Made by a program: the position numbers and the translations under genes. From positions 2,917,780-2,981,779 of the forward strand of contig OZ025881.1 in assembly GCA_964019415.1 (NCBI GenBank): a stretch of DNA of 64,000 nucleotides, read 5' to 3'. This DNA is from Ianthella basta. Lineage: Eukaryota > Porifera > Demospongiae > Verongiida > Ianthellidae. Below the pieces are notes generated by a model that was given only the letters and a program-made list of their open reading frames with translations, had not been told where the DNA came from and ran no database searches. Shown piece after piece: positions 43,757-57,612 of the stretch. Every line of letters begins with the position of its first letter. The first letter of the stretch is position 1.

Positions 43757-44350
43757 ACACCACTAGTCATTTGGCATAGGGCTAGCTATATCATGCATTG
43801 TACCCTCAATCCTTGAAAGGTACCACTAGTCATTTGGTATAGGGCTATATGCATTTTATATGGTGTGTCATAGATCTCTCCCTGCATTCTGCTACTGACT
43901 GTGGTGTGAGAAAGAAAACGACACCCTATCCTCTCTTACATCCATCCATCTACTAGCCACGTGCACTCCTCACACAACAATATGAAATAATCCTGGGCCA
44001 GTGTATAGTGTGTACCCTTACAAACAATGTATTCAGAAGCTGGGAGAACATTGATCTTACAAAAGGTGTAGATCTTTGCCAGCTGAATTTGTGAATCTCT
44101 GAGTGAAGTAACCAAAGCTCAAGGTATACACATAGTCCTGGTAATGATAACCTGCATAAGCTACATATGTGGAGGGATTAGACTGCATGGATATGAGTTT
44201 GGAGCATGCCTTCATGCATTTATCATATGTTATATTATTATATCAATATTTACTCAGGCGCTCCACTGCTATAAAAATTATATATCCTGCATTTTAATGG
44301 TAAATTGACACTAATTAATTAATGCATTAATTCCCACATCCATGTATATA
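43757..44350. repeat. Orphan copy of the gene array 3'-flank repeat
   Basis: About 590 bp like 29690-30210 with no gene attached on its right; the ACCACTAGTCATTTGGCATA block at its start is doubled. It served as the target of the unit beginning at 44351. Confidence 0.7.
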
Positions 44351-44483
44351 GGCGTAATATCCAGTGATTAGCCTTTGTTCAACCTAGCCCGGCCTGGCCG
44401 TTGCAGTGGCTTACTGCAATGAACCGATCTCTCAACAATCACGCGCAAGTCACGCTCATGACTTAGCCTTCCCCCATTAATAT

Positions 44484-44751
44484 TGTTGTGAAGGCATGTC
44501 TCCCAGAGGCTCCGATCACCTGCTGTCATGTAACAATGTGTCATGTAACAATGTGTAGTGCCACTTTGTCTAGAACTTTCGACACATGCATCTATAAAAG
44601 ATCACCTCCTCCCTTTGTAACTGCTGCTGTTGTTGTTCAATAAAGCTCCCTGGTTCCCGTTACCAGTGTCCGTTCGCGTAGTGCCTGTCCCTTACCCTGT
44701 CCTCGCTGTCTGGACTTGTCCCATGTACCCCGTGCCCACGACAACGGTACA
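44484..44751 (+). repeat. 5' LTR of the outer Ty3/gypsy element
   Basis: 268 bp, TGTTGTGAAGG to GGTACA. Contains a TATA-like CTATAAAAG (about 44591) and a polyadenylation signal AATAAA (about 44639), so promoter and 3'-processing signals are in place. Same as 54654-54921. Confidence 0.95.
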
Positions 44752-44775
44752 ATTGGTGTCAGAAGTGGGATCTAG

Positions 44776-46047
44776 ATGAGTACCAGAGCGACAACCAAGA
44801 TGGAGGCTCTTCTTGAGGAGGTGATCCAGCAGAACGAAAAGATAGTCCGGCGAATGGACGAGCAGTCGGAGCAAATTAGCGAGCATCTGAGGATGCTGAG
44901 TCAGCAGCAGTCGGAACGAGTAGACGGTATCGCCCAGAAGCAAAAGGAGACTGAACAGGAAGTCAGTGCCATCGCAGGAGATTTGAGCTCCGTAAAGCTG
45001 ACCGTTGAGGGTCGGCTGAGTGCAATGGAGAGCTCAGTATCAGGACTGACGAATCAGCTCCGCACCGAGGTCGGAGAAAGCCGCGAGTCACTGAAGCAGG
45101 AACTTCGCGTGGAACTACTACGGGAGCTTGGAGCTACACCCGGTCTTCGCCCTGCTGCGCGCCCCTTCACGCCTTCGGACCCGAATACAGAAGCAATTGG
45201 AGGGCAGACTAATCGGGTTGGGGACACCAGTGCAGCGGGCAGGACACCCCTCACCCCGAGTGTGGTACAACAGCGCCCTGCACCATTCGATGGGACGCTT
45301 GCTTGGGACGCCTACCATGCCCAATTTGAGTTGTTGGCAGAAATGAATAGGTGGGACCGCTCAGAGAAGGCCACTTATCTGGCCATCAGTCTAAAAGGGG
45401 CTGCAGCCACCGTATTGACAAACCTCCCTCCGGAGAAGCGCCATGACTATGCAGCCCTGACTACAGCACTGGACTCCCGATTTGGTGCGACACACCAGAC
45501 TGAACTGAACAGGATGCGCCTCAAGTCCAGAACCCGTCACAGAGATGAGACCTTGGCTGAGCTGGCAGAAGATGTTGAACGCCTTACACGCCTTGCATAC
45601 CCAGGAGCAACCGAAGACATGATTCAGGTTCTTGCACAAGACCAATTCGTAGATGCTTTGGTGGAAGAGGACGTGAGGCTCCGTATTCGCCAGAACAAGC
45701 CAGTGACATTGCGTGACGCCTTGAGGATTGCTCTGGAACTAGAGTCTTATCAACTAGCCAGCAGGCAAAGAGTGAAATACGTGAGAGAAGCCCAGTCGCT
45801 GGAGGATGGATACGCAGTGCAACAGCAGGTGTCCACAGCTACAGCCAGGGAAGACATCCTACAGCAACTGGTAGATGCTATTCGTGGTGATGCAAGCTCA
45901 CTCCCATTCAGAAGGAAACCAGGCAGAGGAAATGCCTTGACTTGCTGGGAGTGTGGGGAGAAAGGCCACCTTAGACGAGAGTGCCCTCGGCTGCAGAAGA
46001 AGCAACAGGGAGGGGATACAGTGTCCCGTCCGGGAAACGGGCAGTAG
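44776..46047 (+). CDS. gag of the outer Ty3/gypsy element (423 aa)
   Basis: Structural protein of an LTR retrotransposon. Residues about 10-65 form a Gln/Glu-rich coiled coil (VIQQNEKIVRRMDEQSEQIS), residues about 165-320 resemble the retrotransposon gag core (RRDETLAELAEDVERLTRLA region), and a single CCHC zinc knuckle CWECGEKGHLRREC lies near residues 393-406. It overlaps pol by 67 nt, with pol in the -1 frame, the arrangement many Ty3/gypsy elements use for frameshift expression. GC-richer than the host genes around it. Confidence 0.9.
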   Translation: MSTRATTKMEALLEEVIQQNEKIVRRMDEQSEQISEHLRMLSQQQSERVDGIAQKQKETEQEVSAIAGDLSSVKLTVEGRLSAMESSVSGLTNQLRTEVGESRESLKQELRVELLRELGATPGLRPAARPFTPSDPNTEAIGGQTNRVGDTSAAGRTPLTPSVVQQRPAPFDGTLAWDAYHAQFELLAEMNRWDRSEKATYLAISLKGAAATVLTNLPPEKRHDYAALTTALDSRFGATHQTELNRMRLKSRTRHRDETLAELAEDVERLTRLAYPGATEDMIQVLAQDQFVDALVEEDVRLRIRQNKPVTLRDALRIALELESYQLASRQRVKYVREAQSLEDGYAVQQQVSTATAREDILQQLVDAIRGDASSLPFRRKPGRGNALTCWECGEKGHLRRECPRLQKKQQGGDTVSRPGNGQ

Positions 46048-49000
46048 CCGGGCTTGCGGGGCAAAGCTCGGCTGGGACATCTACAGCCCCCATAGTAGAA
46101 TTTGACATCTTCAAGACGGGATCTATTAACAGCGGAGGAGACAGCCTGACAGTTCCGGGAACCATCAATGGGAGACCCTGTGAGTTGACTGTTGATACTG
46201 GTAGTAACATCTCTATTGTCAGACCTGACATACTCAGAGGAATTAACCATAACCTGATACATCCTGTTAGCAGCTGTCTCAGAACCGTAACTGGGGAAAG
46301 AGCCCCTATCCATGGAAAGGGACTGTTACACCTTGGCATTGGATCCCTTGTAGTCCAGCAGGAGCTCTGGGTTGCAGACATACATGACGAGTGTATCCTT
46401 GGACTTGACTTCCTGCAGTCAAATGGATGTCAGGTAAACCTTCGAGACCAAGCCCTGGTCATTGGTGATGAGGAGTTTCCCTTGAGGAAGCCATCAACCA
46501 GTCCACGACCAAACTGCTGCAGGGTTGTGTTGACAAAGAAAGTTTGTTTGGCCCCACTGGCAGAGGCAATTGTCCCTGTGGAAGTAGACCCAGTCCACAC
46601 CGACTACAGAGTGGGGCTCCTGGAGCAGACCCAGCCATCACCCTTTGGGAGCCTACTGGTGGGGAGGACACTTGTTGACCTGGAAAAAGACAGGATCCCT
46701 TTGAGAGTAATGAACCTCTCCCATCAGCCACTAACTCTCAAGAAGGGGACCGAGGTGGCACATTGCAATCTGGTCAGTGCCATTATTGTTCCAGACGAGA
46801 CCATTAGCTGTGAAGAACCTATGGAGAATGTTCGGAGAACCAGATCAGTGGAAATCTTACCCACCCACCTGAGGGACCTGTATAACCGCAGTATCCTAGG
46901 GCTGGAAGAAGCAAAGCACCCAGAAGTGCACCAGCTCTTATGTTGTTATTCCGATGTCTTTTCCACAGGTCCAGAAGATATTGGGTGTACTGACCTGGTT
47001 AAGCACCACATCAATACTGGCCAAGCCGCACCGGTGCGCCAACCACCCAGACGACTTCCCCTAGCGAAGAGAGAAGAAGCAGAGAAAGCTGTCCGAGAGA
47101 TGAAAGAGCGAGATGTAATTGAGCCATCCGCAAGTCCCTGGTCATCACCTATTGTGCTCGTACAAAAGAAAGATGGAGGTATGAGGTTTTGTGTTGATTA
47201 CCGCAAGTTGAATGATGTCACACACAAGGACTCCTATCCATTGCCACGAATAGATGACACTCTCGAGGCCTTATCAGGAGCAAAGTGGTTTTCTGCACTT
47301 GATCTCAAGAGCGGTTATTGGCAAGTTCAACTGGATGACAACTCCAAAGAAAAAACTGCCTTTTCAACTGGGAGTGGGCTATGGCAGTTCAAGGTTATGC
47401 CGTTTGGACTTTGCAATGCCCCGGCCACCTTTGAACGGTTGATGGAACAGGTTCTAGTTGGGCTACCCACATCCATAGCCCTCGTTTACCTGGATGACAT
47501 CCTTGTACCTGGACGTACCTTTTCCCAGGAGCTTGCCAACCTGAGACAAGTGTTTGAACGGCTGAGGGAGGCTAAACTGAAGTTGTCACCAAAGAAGTGC
47601 ACTCTTTTCCAGAAGGAAGTGAACTACTTGGGTCATGTAGTCAATGAAAAGGGCATCTCCCCAGACCCCTGCAAGGTTGAGGCAGTCAAGTCCTGGCCTA
47701 AGCCTACTACGGCTACCGAAGTGAAGAGCTTCCTGGGCCTTTGCTCCTACTACCGGCGATTCATCAGTTTCTTTGCCGACATTGCACACCCCCTACATCA
47801 GAGTGCCACAGTCTCTCCTTTTGAGTGGACACAGGAAGCTGATGATGCCTTCAGCAAACTAAAGCAGATGCTGACAGAGTCCCCTATTCTTGCCTATCCG
47901 CAACTGGATGTTGAGTTTGTGCTTGACACCGATGCAAGTAGCACTGGCATCGGTGCTGTTCTTTCACAGCAGGTTAATGGACAAGAGAGAGTGGTTGCTT
48001 ATTTCAGTCGCGCCTTGAAAGCACCAGAACGCCACTATTGTGTGACCCGTAAAGAGCTACTGGCCATGGTGAAGGCAATCAGGCACTTTCATGCTTACCT
48101 GTATGGTAGGAAGTTTCGGCTTCGCACTGATCATTCAGCTCTTCGTTGGTTGTTGAACTTCCGGCACCCAGAGGGCCAGACTGCCAGATGGATTGAGAGT
48201 CTCCAGCAGTATGATTTCTCAGTGGAGCACAGGCCCGGTGTTCAACATACCAATGCAGATGCACTCTCAAGACGGCCGTGCCTGAGAGATACTTGTAGGC
48301 ACTGTGAACGATTGGAGTCACGAGAGTGGGGGAACAAGCCTCATGACCGTATAACTGGTCAAGATGTACCACAGGTAGCCACGCTTGCCTTGAGTGGACC
48401 ACAACCCACTGGAGGCAGGTCTTGGGAGAATCTGAGAGAAGCCCAGCTGTGTGATCCAGAGATCAAGCCAGTGTTAGAATGGATGGAGAGAAGTAAGGAC
48501 AAGCCTTCATGGGAGGAGACTGCATCCCACCCTCCAGCCACAAAAGTTTATTGTGCCCAGTGGGAGAGTTTGAAAATCTTCCATGGAGTGTTGTATCGAC
48601 TCTGGGAGACACCGTCTGGAGATGCCACTGTCAGGCAGCTGGTGCTCCCCAAGTCCCTGAGAAGGGAGGTTCTGCAGGAGTTGCACAATGCCCCAACTTC
48701 AGGACACTTGGGCATGGCTAAGACCCTCAGTCGTGTCAGGGAGAGATTCTATTGGCTCCAGTGTAGACGTGATGTCCAGGAGTGGTGTCGAAGCTGTGAT
48801 CTGTGTGCACAGAAGAGAGGACCTCAGAGAAAACCTAAAGCCCCGCTGAGGACATACAATGTGGGATCCCCTTTGGAGCGCATAGCCATCGATGTACTGG
48901 GCCCACTACCCCCTACAGAAGCAGGCAACAAGTATATCCTTGTCATTGCGGATTACTTCACCAAATGGGTGGAAGCCTATCCAATGGTCAATCAAGAAGC

Positions 49001-49186
49001 AGGGACCATAGCAGAACTACTGGTCCAGGAATTTATCAGCCGGTTTGGGATGCCGTTAATAATTCACACTGACCAGGGGCGAAATTTTGAGTCAGCTTTA
49101 TTTGCTGAGATGTGCAAGTTACTAGACATCCAGAAGACCAGAACAACTCCCTACCATCCACAGTCAGATGGCATGGTTGAACGATT
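45981..49186 (+). CDS. pol of the outer Ty3/gypsy element, 5' part up to the inner insertion
   Basis: One open frame carries, in order, protease (VDTGSNISIV, about residue 70), reverse transcriptase (CVDYRKLNDVT near 400; VYLDDIL near 502), RNase H (DTDASSTGIGAVL near 648), the integrase zinc region (H-H-C-C, about 900-943) and the integrase catalytic core (IDVLGPLP, HTDQGRNFE, PYHPQSDGM). The frame has no ATG of its own near the start, in line with gag-pol frameshift expression. It is interrupted at 49187 by the inner element. Confidence 0.92.
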
Positions 49187-49421
49187 TGCAGCAAAGACCT
49201 AACACATCTATCCGTCTATTGGGATCAGACGTGTTGCTGTGTATTGTGTACTGTTGCTGTGATCTGTCCATGTCCTGTAATAACACAACATTGTACTTGT
49301 AGAGACTATTTAAGCTATGCATGAGCATCTTGATTAGAGTTGTTGTCATGAGATTAATCTTTGAGCGGTCAATCCAGTTACTGAGTTACTCGAGCGAGAC
49401 TGTGGGCATCCCGGTGTTACA
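49187..49421 (+). repeat. 5' LTR of the inner Ty3/gypsy element
   Basis: 235 bp from TGCAGCAAAG to GGTGTTACA; TATTTAAG near 49307 may act as a TATA box. Followed by TGGTAGCAGAGGG, a primer-binding-like site. Same as 53693-53927. Confidence 0.94.
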
Positions 49422-49458
49422 GTGGTAGCAGAGGGTGGTTCTTGAGCGACAGGGAGAG

Positions 49459-50289
49459 ATGGCATGGAAGCATGTGAGCCTGCCCCATCCCTTTTCGGAC
49501 GGAGACCCCGTAGAGTGGTTCAAGCGCTATGACATTTGTTGTAAGGCGAATGGTTGGGATGACGACGCCAGAGCTGCCAAACTGCCGACTCTATTGGAAG
49601 GAGAGGCGCTAGCTGTTTGGTCAGAGCTGAGTGAGCAAGACCAGAGTACGTACAGCACGGCTCGGCGGCGGATCAAGGAAGCGATGGCCCCCATCGCATT
49701 TGTTTCACTGAGTGGGTTCAACCAAAGGAAGCAACAGCCTGGAGAGGCACTATCCGTTTATCTTCACGAACTGAAGCGATTATTGGATCAAGCGATGCCA
49801 AACCTAGACGGTGCAACACGAAGCCAGCTGCTGTGCCACCAGTTCCTCAGTGGAATACCAGCAAAAATCAGCAGACAACTCAGAGCATCCGGTGAAGTTG
49901 ACGATCTGGAAAAAGTATTGGAACGCGCCAAGCTCCTGACGACCCTCGACGTTGAAGAAAAGGTAGCCGCGGTTAGTCAACAGACAGCCGCCGTGGAAGT
50001 ACAGGAGCTCAAGGATCAAATCGCCCTACTCACCGACCAAGTGGCAGCCATGAGGACACAGACGGATGCTCATCAATCGTCCCGCGGACGCCCAACAACT
50101 CCCCGCGGTCCACCAGTTTGCTATCGCTGCCAACAGCCAGGGCATTTACAGCGGAACTGTCCCTATCGTCGTCCAGCGCCAATCTGCTACGCATGCCAGC
50201 AGAGGGGACATATAGCCAGAAATTGCAGGCTGCAGGGAAACGACCAAGGGGCACCCAATTCGGGCCGTGGGCGTCCCCAGATGTATTAG
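49459..50289 (+). CDS. gag of the inner Ty3/gypsy element (276 aa)
   Basis: The first ATG in the open frame is 49459 (MAWKHVSLPHPFSDGDPVEW); eight codons upstream are open but lack an ATG. The gag core spans about residues 15-180 (SGFNQRKQQPGEALSVYLHE), followed by a Gln/Val-rich stretch and two CCHC knuckles (CYRCQQPGHLQRNC, CYACQQRGHIARNC) near the end. It overlaps pol, which is in the -1 frame. Confidence 0.9.
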   Translation: MAWKHVSLPHPFSDGDPVEWFKRYDICCKANGWDDDARAAKLPTLLEGEALAVWSELSEQDQSTYSTARRRIKEAMAPIAFVSLSGFNQRKQQPGEALSVYLHELKRLLDQAMPNLDGATRSQLLCHQFLSGIPAKISRQLRASGEVDDLEKVLERAKLLTTLDVEEKVAAVSQQTAAVEVQELKDQIALLTDQVAAMRTQTDAHQSSRGRPTTPRGPPVCYRCQQPGHLQRNCPYRRPAPICYACQQRGHIARNCRLQGNDQGAPNSGRGRPQMY

Positions 50290-53200
50290 GCCCTCCCAAA
50301 CCTGTTCCTTTTGATGTAGTAGTTGCAGCAGTACGGTCTAACACAGCCGTTGTCAGAGGAGAACTGGGATTGAGAAGTATGGACATGATGCTTGACTCAG
50401 GATCATCAGTGTCACTCATTCGGGAAGATGTCCTATCACAACTTTCTGAGGTTTGTTCAGCCCCTCCCAGAGAACTGAGACTGGTGACAGCAGCAGGTGA
50501 GGCCATTCCAGTTGCTGGATACGTTTCTGTGCCTGTGCAGTTAGGGCAAGTGAGGGTGATGCATCCTTTTGTTGTGGTGAAGTCACTTATTGCTGGGGTC
50601 ATTCTTGGAATTGATTTTCTCCAACAGCATGGGCTGGTGTTAGACTTTGCCCATTCCCCAATTAAAGTCCTACCCTATTGCCCTGAGAGTGAAAATTGTC
50701 ATGAGAACACCATTTGTGTTCCTCCAGACATGCAGGGTATTGCTAAAGAAGCAACCAAGGCAAGGGGTGAACTGGGAGCTATCATGTCTATAGGGGAATC
50801 CCCCGAGGATGTAGTCAATGACTGTGCAATTCCCAGACTGGACAAGACCAAAGTAATATCTTTTGAGTTGCCTTCATGCTCTTCAGTCGATGTCACATCG
50901 CTAATGAATGAATTCAAAGAGCTATTCCGGACTACCCCGGGGACTACGACAGTCACTCAGCATTTTATTCCAACATCGGGTCCCCCAGTGAAAATTCCAC
51001 CTAGACGAGTGCCCGCCAATTATCGGAAAGCAGTTGAAGAACAGCTCCAGTCAATGTTGAATGCTGGCATAATCGAGGAGAGCTCGAGCCCATGGATGGC
51101 CCCTGCTGTTTATGTACCCAAAAAGTCAGGAGAAATACGAATTTGCATAGACTACAGAGAATTGAATAAGAAGACCATTAAAGATGCCTATCCGCTACCA
51201 CGGCCAGACGAGGTGCAAGACAAGCTTCAGGGTTCAGCAGTCTTCTCGATCCTCGACCTACAGAGTGGGTATTGGCAGCTGCCAGTGCATCCCGCAGACA
51301 GACCCAAGACTGCATTCAGTCCTGGACCAGGTATGGGGCTGTTTCAATTCACTCGAATGCCATTTGGACTTTCCAATGCACCGGGATCCTTTCAACGGCT
51401 GATGGATAAAGTCTGTCGTGGCTTACCCTTTGTGACGACATATCTGGATGACCTTCTAATCCACTCAGCGACTATTGAGCAGCACAAAGCACACCTACGT
51501 GAAATCTTTGAGCGACTGCAACAGGCAGGGCTCACACTCCGGGGCAAGAAGTGTCGGTTGGGTTTGTCCAAAGTGGCCTACTTAGGCCATATCTTCTCAG
51601 CCGATGGAATGTCACCAGATGATCAAAAAAGTGAGGCCATCCGTTCTTGGCCTACACCGACCACACTGCAGGAGCTGAAGAGCTTCCTGGGACTGGCATC
51701 CTACTATCGCAGGTATGTGAAGAATTTTGCTGACATTGCAGCTCCGCTCAACCTGCTAACCCAGAAGGACAGTCCATTTGTGTGGGACTCATCTTGCCAG
51801 AATGCCTTTCAGCTGTTAAAGGAGAAACTGACTCAGGCCCCTATCCTGGCTTACCCCTGCTTTGGTGCAGATGCACCTATTTTCCACTTGCTGACAGATG
51901 CTAGTGCCTCAGGACTGGGAGCCATTCTAGAACAAGGTGGTCAGGTCATTGCATATGCGAGTCGGGCCCTCAGTGAAGCTGAAAAAAACTACAGTGTTAT
52001 CCAACGAGAATGCCTCGCTATTATGTATGGTGTGAAGCAGTTCCGCCACTACCTACTGGGCAGGTCCTTCAACCTGATTACTGACCATGCTCCACTTCAA
52101 TGGTTGTCAGGGCAGAAAATGGAAGGACTACTGGCTCGATGGGCACTGGCGCTACAGGAGTTTGATTTCCACATTGTCTATCGCAAAGGTGCACAACATG
52201 GGAATGTTGATGCTCTCTCCAGGCGAATGCCGCATGCCCATGTGAGTGCTGCCACATCTTGTGTTCCCTACCCCAAGGATGAACTGCAGCACAAACAGAA
52301 ACAGGATCCCCACATTCAAATAATTTGGCAAGCTCTCAAGTCCAACCAGATTCGTCCACAATCGGCCATGTGGCAGCAACAACCTCTTCGTAGGTATGGT
52401 CAGCTTTGGTCCCAACTTACCATGGTTGATGGTGTGGTCTGCCGCCAGTACAGACCAGGTCCCACTGAAGATATTGTGACGGTTCCAATCATTCCCATCA
52501 CCTTGCGACAATCCATGCTGCGGCAAGTTCATGATGCCCCTGGAGCTGGACACTTAGGCATAGACAAAACCTTGGAGAAAGCCCGTCAGCAGGGTTACTG
52601 GGTTTCTATGTATGAAGATGTTGTTAGACATTGTCAGGAGTGTTCCAGCTGTCAACAAGCAAAGCTGCCAAGTCCGTCCAAAGCACCTATGACAAGTATC
52701 CCCATTGGTCGCCCATGGCAGATGGTGGCAGTTGATGTCCTTGCAGTTCCCCCATCGTACAACCGTAACCGCTACTTGCTTGTCATACAAGATTACTTTA
52801 CAAAGTGGGTGGAGGCTGTCCCTCTTCCAGATCAGACGACGGATAGAATCACGAATGCATTGGTGCAGGTCTTCAGTACCTATGGTATGCCAGAAGTACT
52901 GCACTCTGACCAAGGCAAGAACTTTGAAAGCACCCTGTTGCAGCAGACTCTCACCACTTTTGGCATTCACAAATCACGTACAACAGCATATCATCCAGAA
53001 GGTGATGGAATGGTAGAACGCTTTAACCGTTCCTTGTTACAAATGCTGAGGGTGTATGTCACTGACCAGGCTGACTGGGAGCGATTCCTTCCCTTGATGC
53101 TCTTTGCATATCGCACCTCAGCTCACTCCTCTACAGGTATTTCCCCATTTGAACTTATGTTTGGGCGCTCTCCTCACTTCTCTGATTTGCCACCCATTTC

Positions 53201-53675
53201 TGCTTTCGATGCCGGTACTTATCAATGCCAGCTACGTACTAAGCTTGCACAACTGCAAGACTTAGTGGATGCTTCTCTGACGCAGGCGGGTGCTCGCCAG
53301 AAGCATGCATTTGATCAGGGCTGCCAGCCTCGTTCATTTGAACTTGGAGAACCTGTGTGGTTATCCATACCTACAGCAGGAAAACTGAGTCCTCGGTGGG
53401 AGGGGGGATGGATGATTCAAACACAGAAGGGTCCCTCAACATATGGCATCACAGATGGATCCAGAGAGAAAGTTGTTCACATCAACAGGCTACAACGTCG
53501 GGTTCAACCCAGCAAGTCACCTGCAAAGCCAACTCTCACAGGCCCAAGAGCGCCTCCCTGGCAGCCACCATTGGTTGACCATGATGAGATCCTCCTGGAA
53601 GACATATCACAGCAGCGCCGTTACCCGCAACGGACAAGAAGACCACCAGATCGCTTGCAGCTCGGGACGAGCTGA
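50118..53675 (+). CDS. pol of the inner Ty3/gypsy element (about 1185 codons)
   Basis: Protease (MLDSGSSVSLI near residue 90), reverse transcriptase (CIDYRELNKKT near 340; TYLDDLLIHS near 441), RNase H (LTDASASGLGAIL near 591), integrase zinc region (about 803-848) and core (VAVDVLAVPPS, LHSDQGKNFES, AYHPEGDGMVERF). A GPY/F-like end (KLSPRWEGGWMI) is followed by a basic C terminus. It ends at 53675, just before a purine tract (AGGGGGGACATA) and the 3' LTR. Open throughout. Confidence 0.93.
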   Translation: MLSLPTARAFTAELSLSSSSANLLRMPAEGTYSQKLQAAGKRPRGTQFGPWASPDVLGPPKPVPFDVVVAAVRSNTAVVRGELGLRSMDMMLDSGSSVSLIREDVLSQLSEVCSAPPRELRLVTAAGEAIPVAGYVSVPVQLGQVRVMHPFVVVKSLIAGVILGIDFLQQHGLVLDFAHSPIKVLPYCPESENCHENTICVPPDMQGIAKEATKARGELGAIMSIGESPEDVVNDCAIPRLDKTKVISFELPSCSSVDVTSLMNEFKELFRTTPGTTTVTQHFIPTSGPPVKIPPRRVPANYRKAVEEQLQSMLNAGIIEESSSPWMAPAVYVPKKSGEIRICIDYRELNKKTIKDAYPLPRPDEVQDKLQGSAVFSILDLQSGYWQLPVHPADRPKTAFSPGPGMGLFQFTRMPFGLSNAPGSFQRLMDKVCRGLPFVTTYLDDLLIHSATIEQHKAHLREIFERLQQAGLTLRGKKCRLGLSKVAYLGHIFSADGMSPDDQKSEAIRSWPTPTTLQELKSFLGLASYYRRYVKNFADIAAPLNLLTQKDSPFVWDSSCQNAFQLLKEKLTQAPILAYPCFGADAPIFHLLTDASASGLGAILEQGGQVIAYASRALSEAEKNYSVIQRECLAIMYGVKQFRHYLLGRSFNLITDHAPLQWLSGQKMEGLLARWALALQEFDFHIVYRKGAQHGNVDALSRRMPHAHVSAATSCVPYPKDELQHKQKQDPHIQIIWQALKSNQIRPQSAMWQQQPLRRYGQLWSQLTMVDGVVCRQYRPGPTEDIVTVPIIPITLRQSMLRQVHDAPGAGHLGIDKTLEKARQQGYWVSMYEDVVRHCQECSSCQQAKLPSPSKAPMTSIPIGRPWQMVAVDVLAVPPSYNRNRYLLVIQDYFTKWVEAVPLPDQTTDRITNALVQVFSTYGMPEVLHSDQGKNFESTLLQQTLTTFGIHKSRTTAYHPEGDGMVERFNRSLLQMLRVYVTDQADWERFLPLMLFAYRTSAHSSTGISPFELMFGRSPHFSDLPPISAFDAGTYQCQLRTKLAQLQDLVDASLTQAGARQKHAFDQGCQPRSFELGEPVWLSIPTAGKLSPRWEGGWMIQTQKGPSTYGITDGSREKVVHINRLQRRVQPSKSPAKPTLTGPRAPPWQPPLVDHDEILLEDISQQRRYPQRTRRPPDRLQLGTS

Positions 53676-53692
53676 GTCCTAGGGGGGACATA

Positions 53693-53927
53693 TGCAGCAA
53701 AGACCTAACACATCTATCCGTCTATTGGGATCAGACGTGTTGCTGTGTATTGTGTACTGTTGCTGTGATCTGTCCATGTCCTGTAATAACACAACATTGT
53801 ACTTGTAGAGACTATTTAAGCTATGCATGAGCATCTTGATTAGAGTTGTTGTCATGAGATTAATCTTTGAGCGGTCAATCCAGTTACTGAGTTACTCGAG
53901 CGAGACTGTGGGCATCCCGGTGTTACA
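53693..53927 (+). repeat. 3' LTR of the inner Ty3/gypsy element
   Basis: Same 235 bp as 49187-49421, no difference noticed by eye. Confidence 0.94.
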
Positions 53928-53931
53928 GATT

Positions 53932-54613
53932 CAATAGGACCTTGGAAGCCTTACTTTCTAAGTTCGTTGATCACAACCAGAAGGACTGGGACGAGCACCT
54001 CCAGATTCTCCTAATGTCCTACCGTTCAGCCGTCCATGAGAGTACTGGTTGCTCTCCAGCCAAGCTGATGATGGGGAGAGAACTGACTCTGCCAGTTGAC
54101 TTGACATTTGGTAGACCTGAAGAAGAGGAGCCTCAGACAACTGTGGAGTACACCAATGCCCTGCACGAGCGACTTGAGAGGGTCCATGACTTTGCCAGAA
54201 ACCATCTCAAGCTGGTGACGGACAGAATGCGGCAGAGGTACGACTCGTCACCGGAGTGTCACAGGCTGCAACCAGGTGACGCAGTCTGGCTCCACAACCC
54301 ACAGCGGACTAAAGGCCTTTCCCCTAAGCTTCAACGCCCATGGCAGGGCCCTTTCACCGTCATTAAACGGATCAATGATGTAGTCTACAGGATCAAGCTC
54401 AGTCCAACTGCAAAGCCAAAAGTGGTTCACAGAAATAGACTGTGGAGCTATACTGGGGCTAGCCCTCCAACCTGGTTCCGGGCCCAGGAGCAAACAGTTT
54501 CAGCGCCCTGCACCACTACTGATCCTCAGGCTGATTCGGTACCTAGGGACTCATCAAGCCAACCGAGAAGGAGCAGTCGGACCAGACGCCCTCCTGATCG
54601 TTATCACAGTTGA
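53932..54613 (+). CDS. pol of the outer Ty3/gypsy element, 3' part after the inner insertion
   Basis: About 223 codons with the integrase C-terminal region: SYRSAVHESTGCSPAKLMMG, LTLPVDLTFGRP, then LQPGDAVWLHNPQRTKGLSP and KLQRPWQGPFTVIKRINDVV (GPY/F module). Ends at 54613, ahead of the purine tract and 3' LTR. Listed as a separate piece because the inner element lies between it and 45981-49186. Confidence 0.9.
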
Positions 54614-54653
54614 TTGAGGAACCAAACCCAGTGTGAAGTTAAGGAGGGGAGAG

Positions 54654-54921
54654 TGTTGTGAAGGCATGTCTCCCAGAGGCTCCGATCACCTGCTGTCATG
54701 TAACAATGTGTCATGTAACAATGTGTAGTGCCACTTTGTCTAGAACTTTCGACACATGCATCTATAAAAGATCACCTCCTCCCTTTGTAACTGCTGCTGT
54801 TGTTGTTCAATAAAGCTCCCTGGTTCCCGTTACCAGTGTCCGTTCGCGTAGTGCCTGTCCCTTACCCTGTCCTCGCTGTCTGGACTTGTCCCATGTACCC
54901 CGTGCCCACGACAACGGTACA
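54654..54921 (+). repeat. 3' LTR of the outer Ty3/gypsy element
   Basis: 268 bp, identical by eye to 44484-44751, followed by the target duplication ATAT. Confidence 0.95.
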
Positions 54922-55002
54922 ATATTCACTCTTGTTGAAACCACAAGTGTTTCACTGGTGGGGGATACAAGAGTGACTAGTCATCCTGCATTCCATCAGT
55001 AC

Positions 55003-55047
55003 GCCACACTGATGAGCCCCAATCAGGGAGAAACAGCTGTCTGTGGC
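55003..55047 (+). ncRNA. Hammerhead ribozyme candidate
   Basis: All invariant core bases are present: CTGATGA (55009-55015), GAAA (55030-55033), T-C before the cut (55040-55041). Stem I is six perfect pairs, GCCACA (55003-55008) with TGTGGC (55042-55047). Stem II is CCC (55017-55019) with GGG (55026-55028), closed toward the core by a G-A pair (55016, 55029). Stem III is the palindrome ACAGCTGT (55033-55040): two pairs with a 4-base loop in one molecule, or four pairs in a dimer. Predicted self-cleavage is after C55041. It lies in a 0.4-kb mobile unit, the usual setting of such motifs in animal retroelements. Activity is untested. Confidence 0.68.
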
Positions 55048-55434
55048 TCTTCCATCTCTGTAGGATGACTAGTAATGGGGGAGGGCGATCGCTGGTTGCC
55101 ATAAATAGGACTCCGGCCCCCCAGCCTCCTGAGACACTTCGGTGTAGAAGGCTGGTAGGCGTAATATCCAGTGATTAACCCTTGTTCATCTATGTATATA
55201 TACATAATATTGTATTTATAATTATGCTTGTATTCATCACATGCAGATGGCTTGAACATACGTACATGAATGAAAATGAATATGAATACATTCAATCCAA
55301 TAGACTTGCATTGCCATGGACATATTCCTATAATTATATATGTACATTGAAATTATAATTTTTGTACATATGTAGCTAGTGCCTCTGTTTGCATCAACAG
55401 TTAGAGTTACTATGAATATATCAGATCATTGTAG

Positions 55435-55711: not shown

Positions 55712-56021
55712 CTGTGTCATGCACGGATGAGACAGATAAGATTGCAGATATATATAATTTATATAAAATTATATTATATTGTTATACATATAATATTTAT
55801 ACAGTGCAAGTTATGCATATATACATAACATATATATTAATAGGAGAATGTTGAGAAATAATGGCTGAGGCAGTGTATGTGTCCTGCCACGAAAGGCGAA
55901 ATCAGACAGGATGGATGTATAGCTGGTATGCAGCAGGATTGAAATTATGTTTAGCCGTTGACTGCATGGGGTATAGCTAGGAAACTTGCCTACTTGGCAC
56001 TGTAATGAGCCATTGCTAGCT

Positions 56022-56231
56022 TCAGAAAGGGGTTGGTTCTCTAATACCAGCTTCACAACAGGGTTGAAAACCTTGCCGACGTTTCGACCAGATGCTCTGG
56101 TCTTCTTCGCCCTGAAGAAGACCAGAGCATGTGGTCAAAACGTCGGCAAGGTATTCAACCCTGTTGTGAAGCTGGTATTAGAGAACCAACCCCTTTCTGA
56201 TGCCTGACCCAGCTGAGAAGCCCTCACTTCA
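56022..56231. mobile_element. 210-bp foldback element with degenerate hammerhead arms
   Basis: Arms of about 85 bp from TCAGAAAGGGGTTGGTTCTC are mirrored to GAGAACCAACCCCTTTCTGA at 56200, plus a 31-bp right extension. ATTGCTAGCT flanks it (56012-56021, 56232-56241); the paralogous intron of D has one copy (about 31023-31032), so the insertion is proven by an empty site. The minus arm reads GAAGA, a perfect stem II (GACCAGA with TCTGGTC), GAAACGTC, GGC; the plus arm has CTGAAGA (56112-56118) and AAAACGTC. The order matches the hammerhead-like motif at 108-152 with core changes. A Penelope-like remnant is plausible. Confidence 0.55.
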
Positions 56232-57612
56232 ATTGCTAGCTTGAACGCCCAGTGGAGACGACCTGGCCTGTGTGGTCCTTGTAGAGCCAACTGGTCCAGT
56301 TCACCCTCACTCATGATCCTGACAGGTGCACTGTCCAGTGGAATCGTAGTAGGCACAAAGCTTAAAGCCAGCGGCATTGCAGACTGCTGCAGCTGACTAG
56401 GCTTGTGCTGAGAGACAGCATGCATGCAATTGCACAATGCAGCTATGAACACGACGTACCAAAACTATTGCACAATGCAACGTATGTACCATATATGGTC
56501 TGGACACGACGTACCAAATCTTTCCACCCAGAAGAGAGGGGCAAGCGAAGGTGGGGGGGTAAGAATATTGCAATACAAAGTGCTATAGTGCAAACATACA
56601 TACTATATATAACTAAACTGATTCCAGTTTCTAGTTTTAGTTGTGAATCAAGGTGAAGCGTATACCAACACTAGTGACCTTAATACGATGGTCAAATGAA
56701 AACCACTTTGCACACTAATTGTTAATACACCTGTTCCCAATTTGTGTTCAAGCCCTTAATTTTCATTGCTACTACCACAGCACACATGCATGCACATTTC
56801 ACTGCAGTAGCCTACTGCTGAGCTAGGTGTTGATATGTAGGTGGGTAATGTCTCTGGCTCTCTTTCATTTTAGTTTGATGACTGCATGAGGGAGATGATT
56901 TAGAGTTGCCACCTATAAAGCTCCACTGCCCACTTTGCCTGCTAGTGTGGTGTGAGAAAGAAAACGAGACCCTATTCTCTCTTACATCTAACAATGCATT
57001 CGGATCTGATCCAGTAGCCACTCCTCACACAACTATAATTATAATATGAACATGACCCTGGGCCAGGCCAGTGTGTATAGGGTATGCCCTAATTATGCAA
57101 TTCAGAAGCTGGGAGAAAACTGATCATGCAAGTTGTAGAGCTTTGCCAGCTGAATTGGTGAATCTATAAGTGAAGTACCAGGAGCTCAAGGTATACACCT
57201 AGTCCTGGTAATGATAACCTGCATATGTATGTGGAGGGACTGGACTGGAATTTATGAGTTTGGAGCACGTACCTTTGACGTGTGCATTTGTGCTTAATGT
57301 AATATTAACTCCACTTCTATAATTATTATGTCCTGCATTTTAATTAAGTTAGTTGACACTCTCAAATGCCACATCCTTTCATGTACACATAACTATGTAT
57401 GCTTGCATTGATTACATGTAGATGGCTTGAACATACATGAATAAATGCAGTTGGATATGAACACATTCAAGCCAATAGGCTTGCATTGCCATGGCTACAT
57501 TCTTATTTATGTATGTACATAGAAATAAAATGTTTTTGTACATACTTAGCTACTGGCCCTGCTTGCATCAACTACTAGAGTTACTATGAATATGTATATG
57601 AGAGCGTTGTAG

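What the first reader, a model, noticed from the sequence alone, without database searches (positions are those of the whole stretch)
55003..55047. Intact-looking hammerhead ribozyme in a spacer
Every core base is present, with a 6-bp perfect stem I that closes exactly around the core and a palindromic stem III. Chance formation of core plus stem I at the right spacing is unlikely. Only the G-A closing pair and three-pair stem II are weak.
Basis: partly seen in the sequence, partly recalled or inferred. Interest (0 to 1): 0.78.

Follow-up and report, generated by a model that had tools for sequence, protein, structure and literature searches.

The report
Split retrozyme copy carrying damaged hammerhead
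The hammerhead ribozyme is real but is one worn copy of a mobile RNA element found in hundreds of places in this animal-like genome, and the way its copies sit in the DNA suggests that a larger jumping gene, a Penelope element, inserts it.

Summary
The motif at 55003-55047 is a genuine type I hammerhead: 28.0 bits with Rfam RF00163 (cut-off 34), none in 200 shuffles, and 565 genome sites within two mismatches of the family core against 0 in a reversed control. It is not a solitary intact ribozyme. It belongs to a ~365-nt retrozyme copy split by a young Gypsy element (44349-44483 plus 54922-55188), flanked by a 14-bp target duplication. This copy has a G·A mismatch at the base of stem II; the 29 other copies compared all pair there.

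The larger result concerns mobilisation. In 27 of 33 distinct insertions two arms lie head-to-head, 3' ends outward, one arm ending at start site 1 and the other at site 2. None has two like ends; six are one-armed, odd or unresolved. TSDs are 12-16 bp and the two arms share alleles. GIY-YIG Penelope elements of the same genome show the same pattern (13 of 13 pairs read; TSDs in 11), and a 12/13-nt motif is shared just upstream of site 2. This points to Penelope machinery as the mobiliser of retrozymes, which a 2020 review left open. No RNA or biochemistry could be tested, and LINEs were not examined as a control.

The parts
55003..55047 (+). type I hammerhead ribozyme motif; expected cut after 55041; G55016·A55029 mismatch at the base of stem II
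54922..55188 (+). 3' part of the retrozyme copy (unit positions 246 to 365 and 1 to 147, unit numbered from the hammerhead cut); ends at reverse-transcription start site 1 (..TTGTTCA)
44349..44483 (+). 5' part of the same retrozyme copy (unit 115-249), on the far side of the Gypsy element; with the 3' part the copy is about 1.09 units long
44337..44350 (+). left target-site duplication of the retrozyme (CATCCATGTATATA; overlaps the element by 2 bases)
55187..55200 (+). right target-site duplication (CATCTATGTATATA; one mismatch to the left one)
44401..44434 (+). site-2 region as copied in this insertion: hairpin TTGCAGT/ACTGCAA (44401-44419), then 15 nt to reverse-transcription start site 2 (..TCTCA, 44434); ACTGCAATGAACC at 44413-44425 is the motif shared with the Penelope tail
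54976..55073 (+). long stem ACTAGTCATCCTGCA (54976-54990) / TGTAGGATGACTAGT (55059-55073) that encloses the hammerhead
44484..54921 (+). Gypsy-type LTR element that splits the retrozyme; LTRs 44484-44751 and 54654-54921 identical over 268 of 268 bases; 4-bp target duplication ATAT at 44480-44483 and 54922-54925
49184..53928 (+). second Gypsy-type element nested in the first (239-bp LTRs, 99.6% identical; gag and pol reading frames)

Best explanation
The motif is the hammerhead of one old copy of a metazoan-type non-LTR retrozyme: a ~365-nt non-coding repeat whose transcripts are cut by type I hammerheads into unit-length RNAs that are closed into circles (cutting and closure inferred from the family, not shown here). 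The circles or multimers are then used by the Penelope-like element (PLE) machinery of the same genome. The PLE enzyme opens both strands of an AT-rich target about 14 bp apart, and each target strand primes reverse transcription on the same RNA, one at start site 1 (unit ~147) and the other at start site 2 (unit ~200). The two cDNA arms run round the template for variable distances, sometimes several turns, and are joined head-to-head. The copy in the window is a single-armed product (5' end at unit 115, 3' end at site 1, 1.09 units). It was later split by a Gypsy insertion, and its hammerhead lost a stem II pair, so it is most likely inactive now.
For: Hammerhead: RF00163 28.0 bits; in four sister loci 10 of 11 hammerheads exceed the cut-off; compensatory changes between subfamilies in stem I pairs 3, 4 and 6 and stem II pair 2. 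Retrozyme: tandem copies with a 365-nt period and 565 core sites. Insertion anatomy: in 27 of 33 distinct insertions two head-to-head arms, one ending at unit 134-153 and the other at 200-209; 0 of 33 with two like ends; 5' ends variable, up to 6.24 turns. TSD of 12-16 bp in 30 of 34 loci (29 of 33 distinct) against 4 of 1122 mismatched pairings; the TSDs are 71% AT, the loci 55%. Both arms share alleles at 73 of 85 comparisons, against 53% when arms are shuffled, 0 of 2000 shuffles as high. Neighbour order among the first 100 listed sites within 1.2 kb: 16 '- then +' to 1 '+ then -'. PLEs of the same genome: GIY-YIG neighbours 13 '- then +' to 0; one short and one tailed arm in 13 of 13 pairs, these being all head-to-head pairs within 4 kb in the list; TSD 11-16 bp in 11 of 13, against 0 of 132 mismatched pairings. 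Shared site-2 motif AC[TA]GCAATGAACC, 12 of 13 bases. Stem-loop, then 13-16 nt, then site 2 in three retrozyme families and the PLE. Frangieh et al. 2024 (PMC11167929; abstract and the whole main-text section read) show that a PLE protein cleaves and extends both strands and starts at two adjacent internal sites, the 'tail' being the stretch between them.
Against: No RNA, cleavage or circularity could be tested here. LINEs of this genome were not examined as a control. Six of 33 insertions do not show the two-armed form: four are one-armed (window, L007, L010, L011), L015 has a left arm that ends at unit 238, at neither site, and the left end of L079 lies outside the fetched stretch; L007, L010 and L015 have no TSD. 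The shared motif alone is modest (71 of 5000 shuffles of the unit reach its score, 67 of 5000 shuffles of the PLE tail, 9 of 5000 for the retrozyme tail only), and the other retrozyme families have other letters there. The spacing of the two sites differs (53 nt in the retrozyme, 31-36 nt in the PLE). Lower divergence of the hammerhead than of the rest is not significant in loci not selected by the hammerhead (10 of 1170 against 116 of 8668 sites, p 0.21); the p 0.003 includes loci picked by their core. The unit is 52.9% GC, whereas published metazoan retrozymes are described as under 50%. In vitro the anole PLE shows no strand difference in start site and inserts without hammerhead cleavage, so the one-of-each rule and the need for circles remain inferred. 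More than one turn could also come from linear multimers.
Confidence: 0.82

Rival explanations
1. A stand-alone working hammerhead in a spacer that processes a transcript at this locus.
For: Core bases and stem I are complete.
Against: It lies in a repeat present at hundreds of sites, the copy is split by a Gypsy element and carries a private stem II mismatch.
Confidence: 0.05
2. The repeats are satellite DNA amplified at DNA level (unequal crossing-over), with the hammerhead as a passenger.
For: Perfectly identical 365-nt tandem copies on C7.
Against: Dispersed insertions have target duplications (30 of 34 loci), mostly fixed 3' ends and variable 5' ends.
Confidence: 0.04
3. Retrozymes are inserted by a LINE (APE- or R2-type), not by PLEs.
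For: TSD lengths alone would fit many LINEs (recalled). LINEs of this genome were not examined.
Against: Head-to-head arms with outward 3' ends, two start sites and one tail per pair match the PLEs of the same genome; no poly(A) or simple-repeat 3' tail of the element is seen in the junctions printed.
Confidence: 0.1
4. The second arm arises by snap-back self-priming of the first cDNA, akin to the self-priming proposed for rotifer Penelopes (Arkhipova et al. 2013, PMC3846280, passages read; there on an antisense template), not by a second target primer.
For: Some arm junctions lie at hairpins (L003, L012, L014).
Against: A snap-back copy should end where the first arm ends (inference); here 27 of 27 two-armed family-A insertions, 4 of 4 family-B and 13 of 13 PLE pairs have different ends.
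Confidence: 0.08

Closest known systems
Metazoan non-LTR retrozymes with type I hammerheads (Cervera and de la Pena 2020, PMC7229834; abstract, sections 13, 14 and 17 and passages read)
   Same: Small non-coding repeat within 150-450 bp, tandem copies, type I hammerhead with a very short palindromic stem III, TSDs longer than 4 bp, co-existing PLEs
   Different: Head-to-head arms and two preferred 3' ends are described here; the words 'inverted' and 'head-to-head' do not occur in the held main text of that paper. GC is 52.9% here, described there as under 50%
Penelope-like elements with minimal hammerheads and an optional 'tail' (PMC11167929, abstract and main text read; PMC3846280, passages read)
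   Same: Two start sites, outward 3' ends, tail on one arm of a head-to-head pair, AT-rich targets with short TSDs, hammerhead upstream of the start sites
   Different: The retrozyme has no reading frame for RT and endonuclease, another hammerhead subtype, and 53 nt instead of 31-36 nt between its two sites
Plant LTR retrozymes (PMC4918200, search listing only; features as described in PMC7229834 section 13)
   Same: Hammerhead-bearing non-autonomous retroelement propagated as RNA circles
   Different: Those have type III hammerheads in LTRs with PBS and PPT and 4-bp TSDs; here type I and 12-16 bp TSDs

Membership tests
Hammerhead ribozyme type I (RF00163) | covariance score over the gathering cut-off | tested here: inconclusive
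   window copy 28.0 bits against 34, so not met by this copy; 10 of 11 hammerheads in four sister loci are over it
Hammerhead ribozyme type I (RF00163) | conserved core CUGANGA / GAAA / UH and open stem I | tested here: met
Hammerhead ribozyme type I (RF00163) | pair 10.1-11.1 closing stem II, needed for a working copy | tested here: not met
   G·A in the window copy; C in its place in all 29 other copies. So: a hammerhead-derived motif, not a claimed working one
Hammerhead ribozyme type I (RF00163) | self-cleavage | not testable with these tools
   no biochemistry here
Metazoan non-LTR retrozyme | small (150-450 bp) repeat with a type I hammerhead, in tandem and dispersed copies | tested here: met
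   365-nt period, 565 core sites
Metazoan non-LTR retrozyme | TSD, when present, longer than 4 bp | tested here: met
   12-16 bp, median 14, in 30 of 34 loci
Metazoan non-LTR retrozyme | no LTR, PBS or PPT | tested here: inconclusive
   copies are head-to-head arms, not LTR-bounded; PBS and PPT were not searched for
Metazoan non-LTR retrozyme | GC under 50% (a trait described in the 2020 paper; I treat it as descriptive, not defining) | tested here: not met
   the unit read from L024 is 52.9% GC
Metazoan non-LTR retrozyme | expressed as circular RNA | not testable with these tools
   no RNA data
Penelope-like element | reading frame with RT and GIY-YIG endonuclease | tested here: not met
   the 365-nt unit is too short for it; GIY-YIG matches are separate loci
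Penelope-like element | insertion anatomy (two RT start sites, one tail, head-to-head) | tested here: met
   against 56, 61, 87: the retrozyme inserts like a PLE without being one
Plant LTR retrozyme | type III hammerhead inside LTRs, 4-bp TSD | tested here: not met
   type I, TSD 12-16 bp

The most novel reading that the evidence does not exclude
Animal retrozymes are SINE-like parasites of Penelope elements. They imitate the PLE tail (stem-loop, 13-16 nt, start site) and are inserted by twin priming of a single RNA circle, one target strand at each of two start sites. This yields the one-tail rule that also explains the old puzzle of the optional Penelope tail.
Probability: 0.7. Interest if true: 0.75.

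Novelty: new member of a known kind. Interest (0 to 1): 0.6.

Why it matters
A 2020 review states that metazoan retrozymes show no conserved motif from which the mobilising element could be deduced (PMC7761336, passages read). Here the insertion anatomy itself points to the helper: retrozymes and GIY-YIG Penelope elements of one genome share arm topology, two-site ends, TSD size and a tail motif. It also suggests that the optional Penelope tail is one half of a two-primer reaction on one RNA, which can be tested with a purified PLE protein.

Tried and rejected
Chance hammerhead: rejected (0 in 200 shuffles; 0 of the reversed pattern). Association with the neighbouring Gypsy LTR: rejected; the LTR simply interrupts the repeat. 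Selection on the hammerhead seen as lower divergence: not significant without core-selected loci. The Rfam miRNA, rliF and enod40 matches, all far below their cut-offs, were ignored, as was the MIR397 match.

Rows dropped or merged: L023-L030 are one array (C7) and were counted once as an insertion; L074 and L076 are one insertion in duplicated DNA; L072 and L073 likewise. L071-L073 belong to retrozyme family B and were kept out of the family-A counts. PLE pairs: all 13 head-to-head pairs within 4 kb in the list were read, 5 of them also among the 13 GIY-YIG pairs; the other 8 GIY-YIG pairs were not fetched. PLE arms without a partner in hand (L055, L063, L065, L066, L092) were left out. The short second arms of L009 and L020 were read by eye, and the ends of L093, where I see no TSD with at most one mismatch.

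A claim of not being in print (PLE-type insertion anatomy of retrozymes) rests on the searches only, in an open-access library; Craig et al. 2021 was not held.

Full report
What was claimed and what is there. The bases at 55003-55047 are as described. Rfam's type I hammerhead matches exactly these coordinates over its whole length with 28.0 bits, E 0.00012 for 701 bases, under the curated 34 bits, so a plain Rfam scan of the window reports nothing. A simple descriptor finds this one place in the window and none in 200 dinucleotide shuffles. The genome that holds the window (209 Mb in 96 contigs; window at C14:2917780-2981779) has 565 places within two mismatches of the family core and 0 for the pattern read backwards.

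State of this copy. The 29 other copies compared with it (L002-L030; eight of them units of one array) all have C where the window has A at 55029, the partner of G55016 at the base of stem II. The window differs from all 29 at five further positions as well (55058, 55091, 55103, 55110, 55133). In four sister loci 9 of 11 hammerheads score 38.7 bits, one 37.6 and one 33.2, against the cut-off of 34. The window copy is therefore a worn member of a family most of whose sampled members look intact. Between subfamilies of the same genome the stems change in compensating ways: stem I pair 3 A-U to G-C, pair 4 C-G to U-A, pair 6 G-C to A-U, and stem II pair 2 C-G to G-C (27 sequence variants; sites were picked by the core letters, so the core's constancy there is no evidence).

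It is a retrozyme copy cut in two. The unit is about 365 nt, seen as perfect tandem copies on C7. Numbered from the hammerhead cut, the window holds unit 115-249 at 44349-44483 and unit 246-365 plus 1-147 at 54922-55188. Between them sits a Gypsy-type element with 268 of 268 identical LTR bases and a 4-bp duplication ATAT, itself holding a second one. The retrozyme copy is flanked by CATCCATGTATATA at 44337-44350 and CATCTATGTATATA at 55187-55200, a 14-bp target duplication with one mismatch. It is about 1.09 units long, so its template was longer than one linear unit.

How the family inserts. I mapped 33 distinct family-A insertions (34 loci, one being a duplicate): the window, L002-L022, the C7 array, L070 and L074-L083 with L074 and L076 as one. 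In 27 of the 33 the insertion consists of two arms head-to-head with the 3' ends outward, one arm ending at site 1 (unit 134-153, mostly 147..TTGTTCA) and the other at site 2 (unit 200-209..GACCTCTCA), sometimes with a second arm of only 10-40 nt. None of the 33 has two like ends. The other six: the window (site 1), L007 (site 1), L010 (site 2) and L011 (site 2) are one-armed; L015 has site 2 on the right but a left arm ending at unit 238, at neither site; L079 has site 2 on the right and a left end beyond the fetched stretch. The 5' ends vary and single arms cover up to 6.24 turns (5.84 and 0.40 contiguous, because the query held six units). Target duplications of 12-16 bp, median 14, were found in 30 of 34 loci, against 4 of 1122 pairings of left and right flanks from different loci (none in L007, L010, L015, L079). 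They are 71% AT, the loci 55%. At five polymorphic positions the two arms of a locus agree in 73 of 85 comparisons, 53% being expected when arms are shuffled among loci (0 of 2000 shuffles as high; the 25 loci include L011, whose plus-strand piece is a separate insertion). Repeated passes within one arm agree in 45 of 51. So both arms were most likely copied from one RNA, or from RNAs of one source. A related family B shows the same one-of-each pattern in 4 of 4 distinct insertions (L034, L041, L071, L072 with L073 as its duplicate).

The helper. The genome has PLEs with GIY-YIG domains (55 matches over the cut-off). Their neighbours within 4 kb are '- then +' 13 times and '+ then -' 0 times; for the first 100 listed retrozyme cores within 1.2 kb the numbers are 16 and 1. 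A search with one PLE 3' end lists 45 places, among them 13 head-to-head pairs within 4 kb. In 13 of 13 one arm stops short (..CTCTAAATCA) and the other carries a tail of 31-36 nt (..TCACATTTCACACAGCAATGAACCCTTATCA, some with TATCA more), with target duplications of 11-16 bp in 11 of 13 and in 0 of 132 mismatched pairings of 12 of them. This matches what Frangieh et al. 2024 (PMC11167929; abstract and the complete main-text section read) found with a purified anole PLE: both strands are cut and extended, reverse transcription starts at two adjacent internal sites, and the 'tail' is the stretch between them. Arkhipova et al. 2013 (PMC3846280, passages) note that the tail is optionally present on one of the inverted pLTRs and that head-to-head is the commonest order, and favour self-priming on an antisense template. 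The tail of this genome's PLE and site 2 of the retrozyme share AC[TA]GCAATGAACC, 12 of 13 bases, at 7-9 nt from the end; 71 of 5000 shuffles of the unit reach that score anywhere, 67 of 5000 shuffles of the PLE tail, and 9 of 5000 for the retrozyme tail alone. In the PLE and in retrozyme families A, B and C a stem-loop is followed by 14, 15, 13 and 16 nt and then site 2 (the end of family C is less certain).

Mechanism, shown and inferred. Shown by sequence: insertions with target duplications, two preferred 3' ends and variable 5' ends, one of each end per two-armed insertion, and one source for both arms. These are the marks of target-primed copying of an RNA. Inferred: that the template is a hammerhead-made circle (multi-turn arms allow it, linear multimers are not excluded); that the PLE protein does it; that two target strands prime the same RNA molecule at different sites. 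Snap-back copying of the first strand should give two like ends and is not seen.

Relation to what is known. It is a metazoan non-LTR retrozyme by repeat size, hammerhead type, tandem copies and TSD (Cervera and de la Pena 2020, PMC7229834; abstract, sections 13, 14 and 17 and passages read); its GC of 52.9% lies outside the under-50% described there, which I take as a descriptive trait. That paper calls PLEs a strong candidate for the helper; a curation guide says that retrozymes may rely on PLEs (PMC8969392, passages); the 2020 review (PMC7761336, passages) says that no conserved motif allows the helper to be deduced. I found no paper that describes PLE-type insertion ends of retrozymes. Novelty is thus moderate for the object and higher for the evidence on its helper.

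Against. No biochemistry or RNA was available. The tail letters differ between retrozyme families. The anole PLE in vitro shows no strand bias in start site and does not need the hammerhead. LINEs were not examined as a control. Lower divergence in the hammerhead is not significant in loci not chosen by it. Eight GIY-YIG pairs were not read.

Noticed in passing
56012-56242: A head-to-head pair of short Penelope pLTR-like arms with a minimal hammerhead (core at 56112 and its mirror near 56076-56091): short left arm, right arm with a ~32-nt tail, 11-bp target duplication ATTGCTAGCTT (56012-56022 and 56232-56242). The one-tail rule in another family, about 0.8 kb from the finding (arms read by eye).
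   Followed up: partly
108-149: Another minimal hammerhead of the Penelope kind (CTGATGA at 112, six-pair stem II, GAAACGTC) that the Rfam gathering search does not list.
   Followed up: no
L038, L042, L044, L046-L048: Type I hammerheads with longer stem III and flanks that match the retrozyme unit only around the core, found by RF00163 in the same genome: at least one further hammerhead-bearing repeat family.
   Followed up: no
G000:C7:2397813-2401001 (L023-L030): A head-to-head retrozyme insertion with 2.5 and 6.24 turns in its two arms; the plus-arm units seen in L024 are identical to each other, so the family has probably been active recently.
   Followed up: partly
L011 (C1:868518-871757): An insertion at a target that carries GGGATTGTTG, complementary to 10 bases of the RNA at and just past site 2, suggesting that primer-template pairing can steer the start site.
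   Followed up: no
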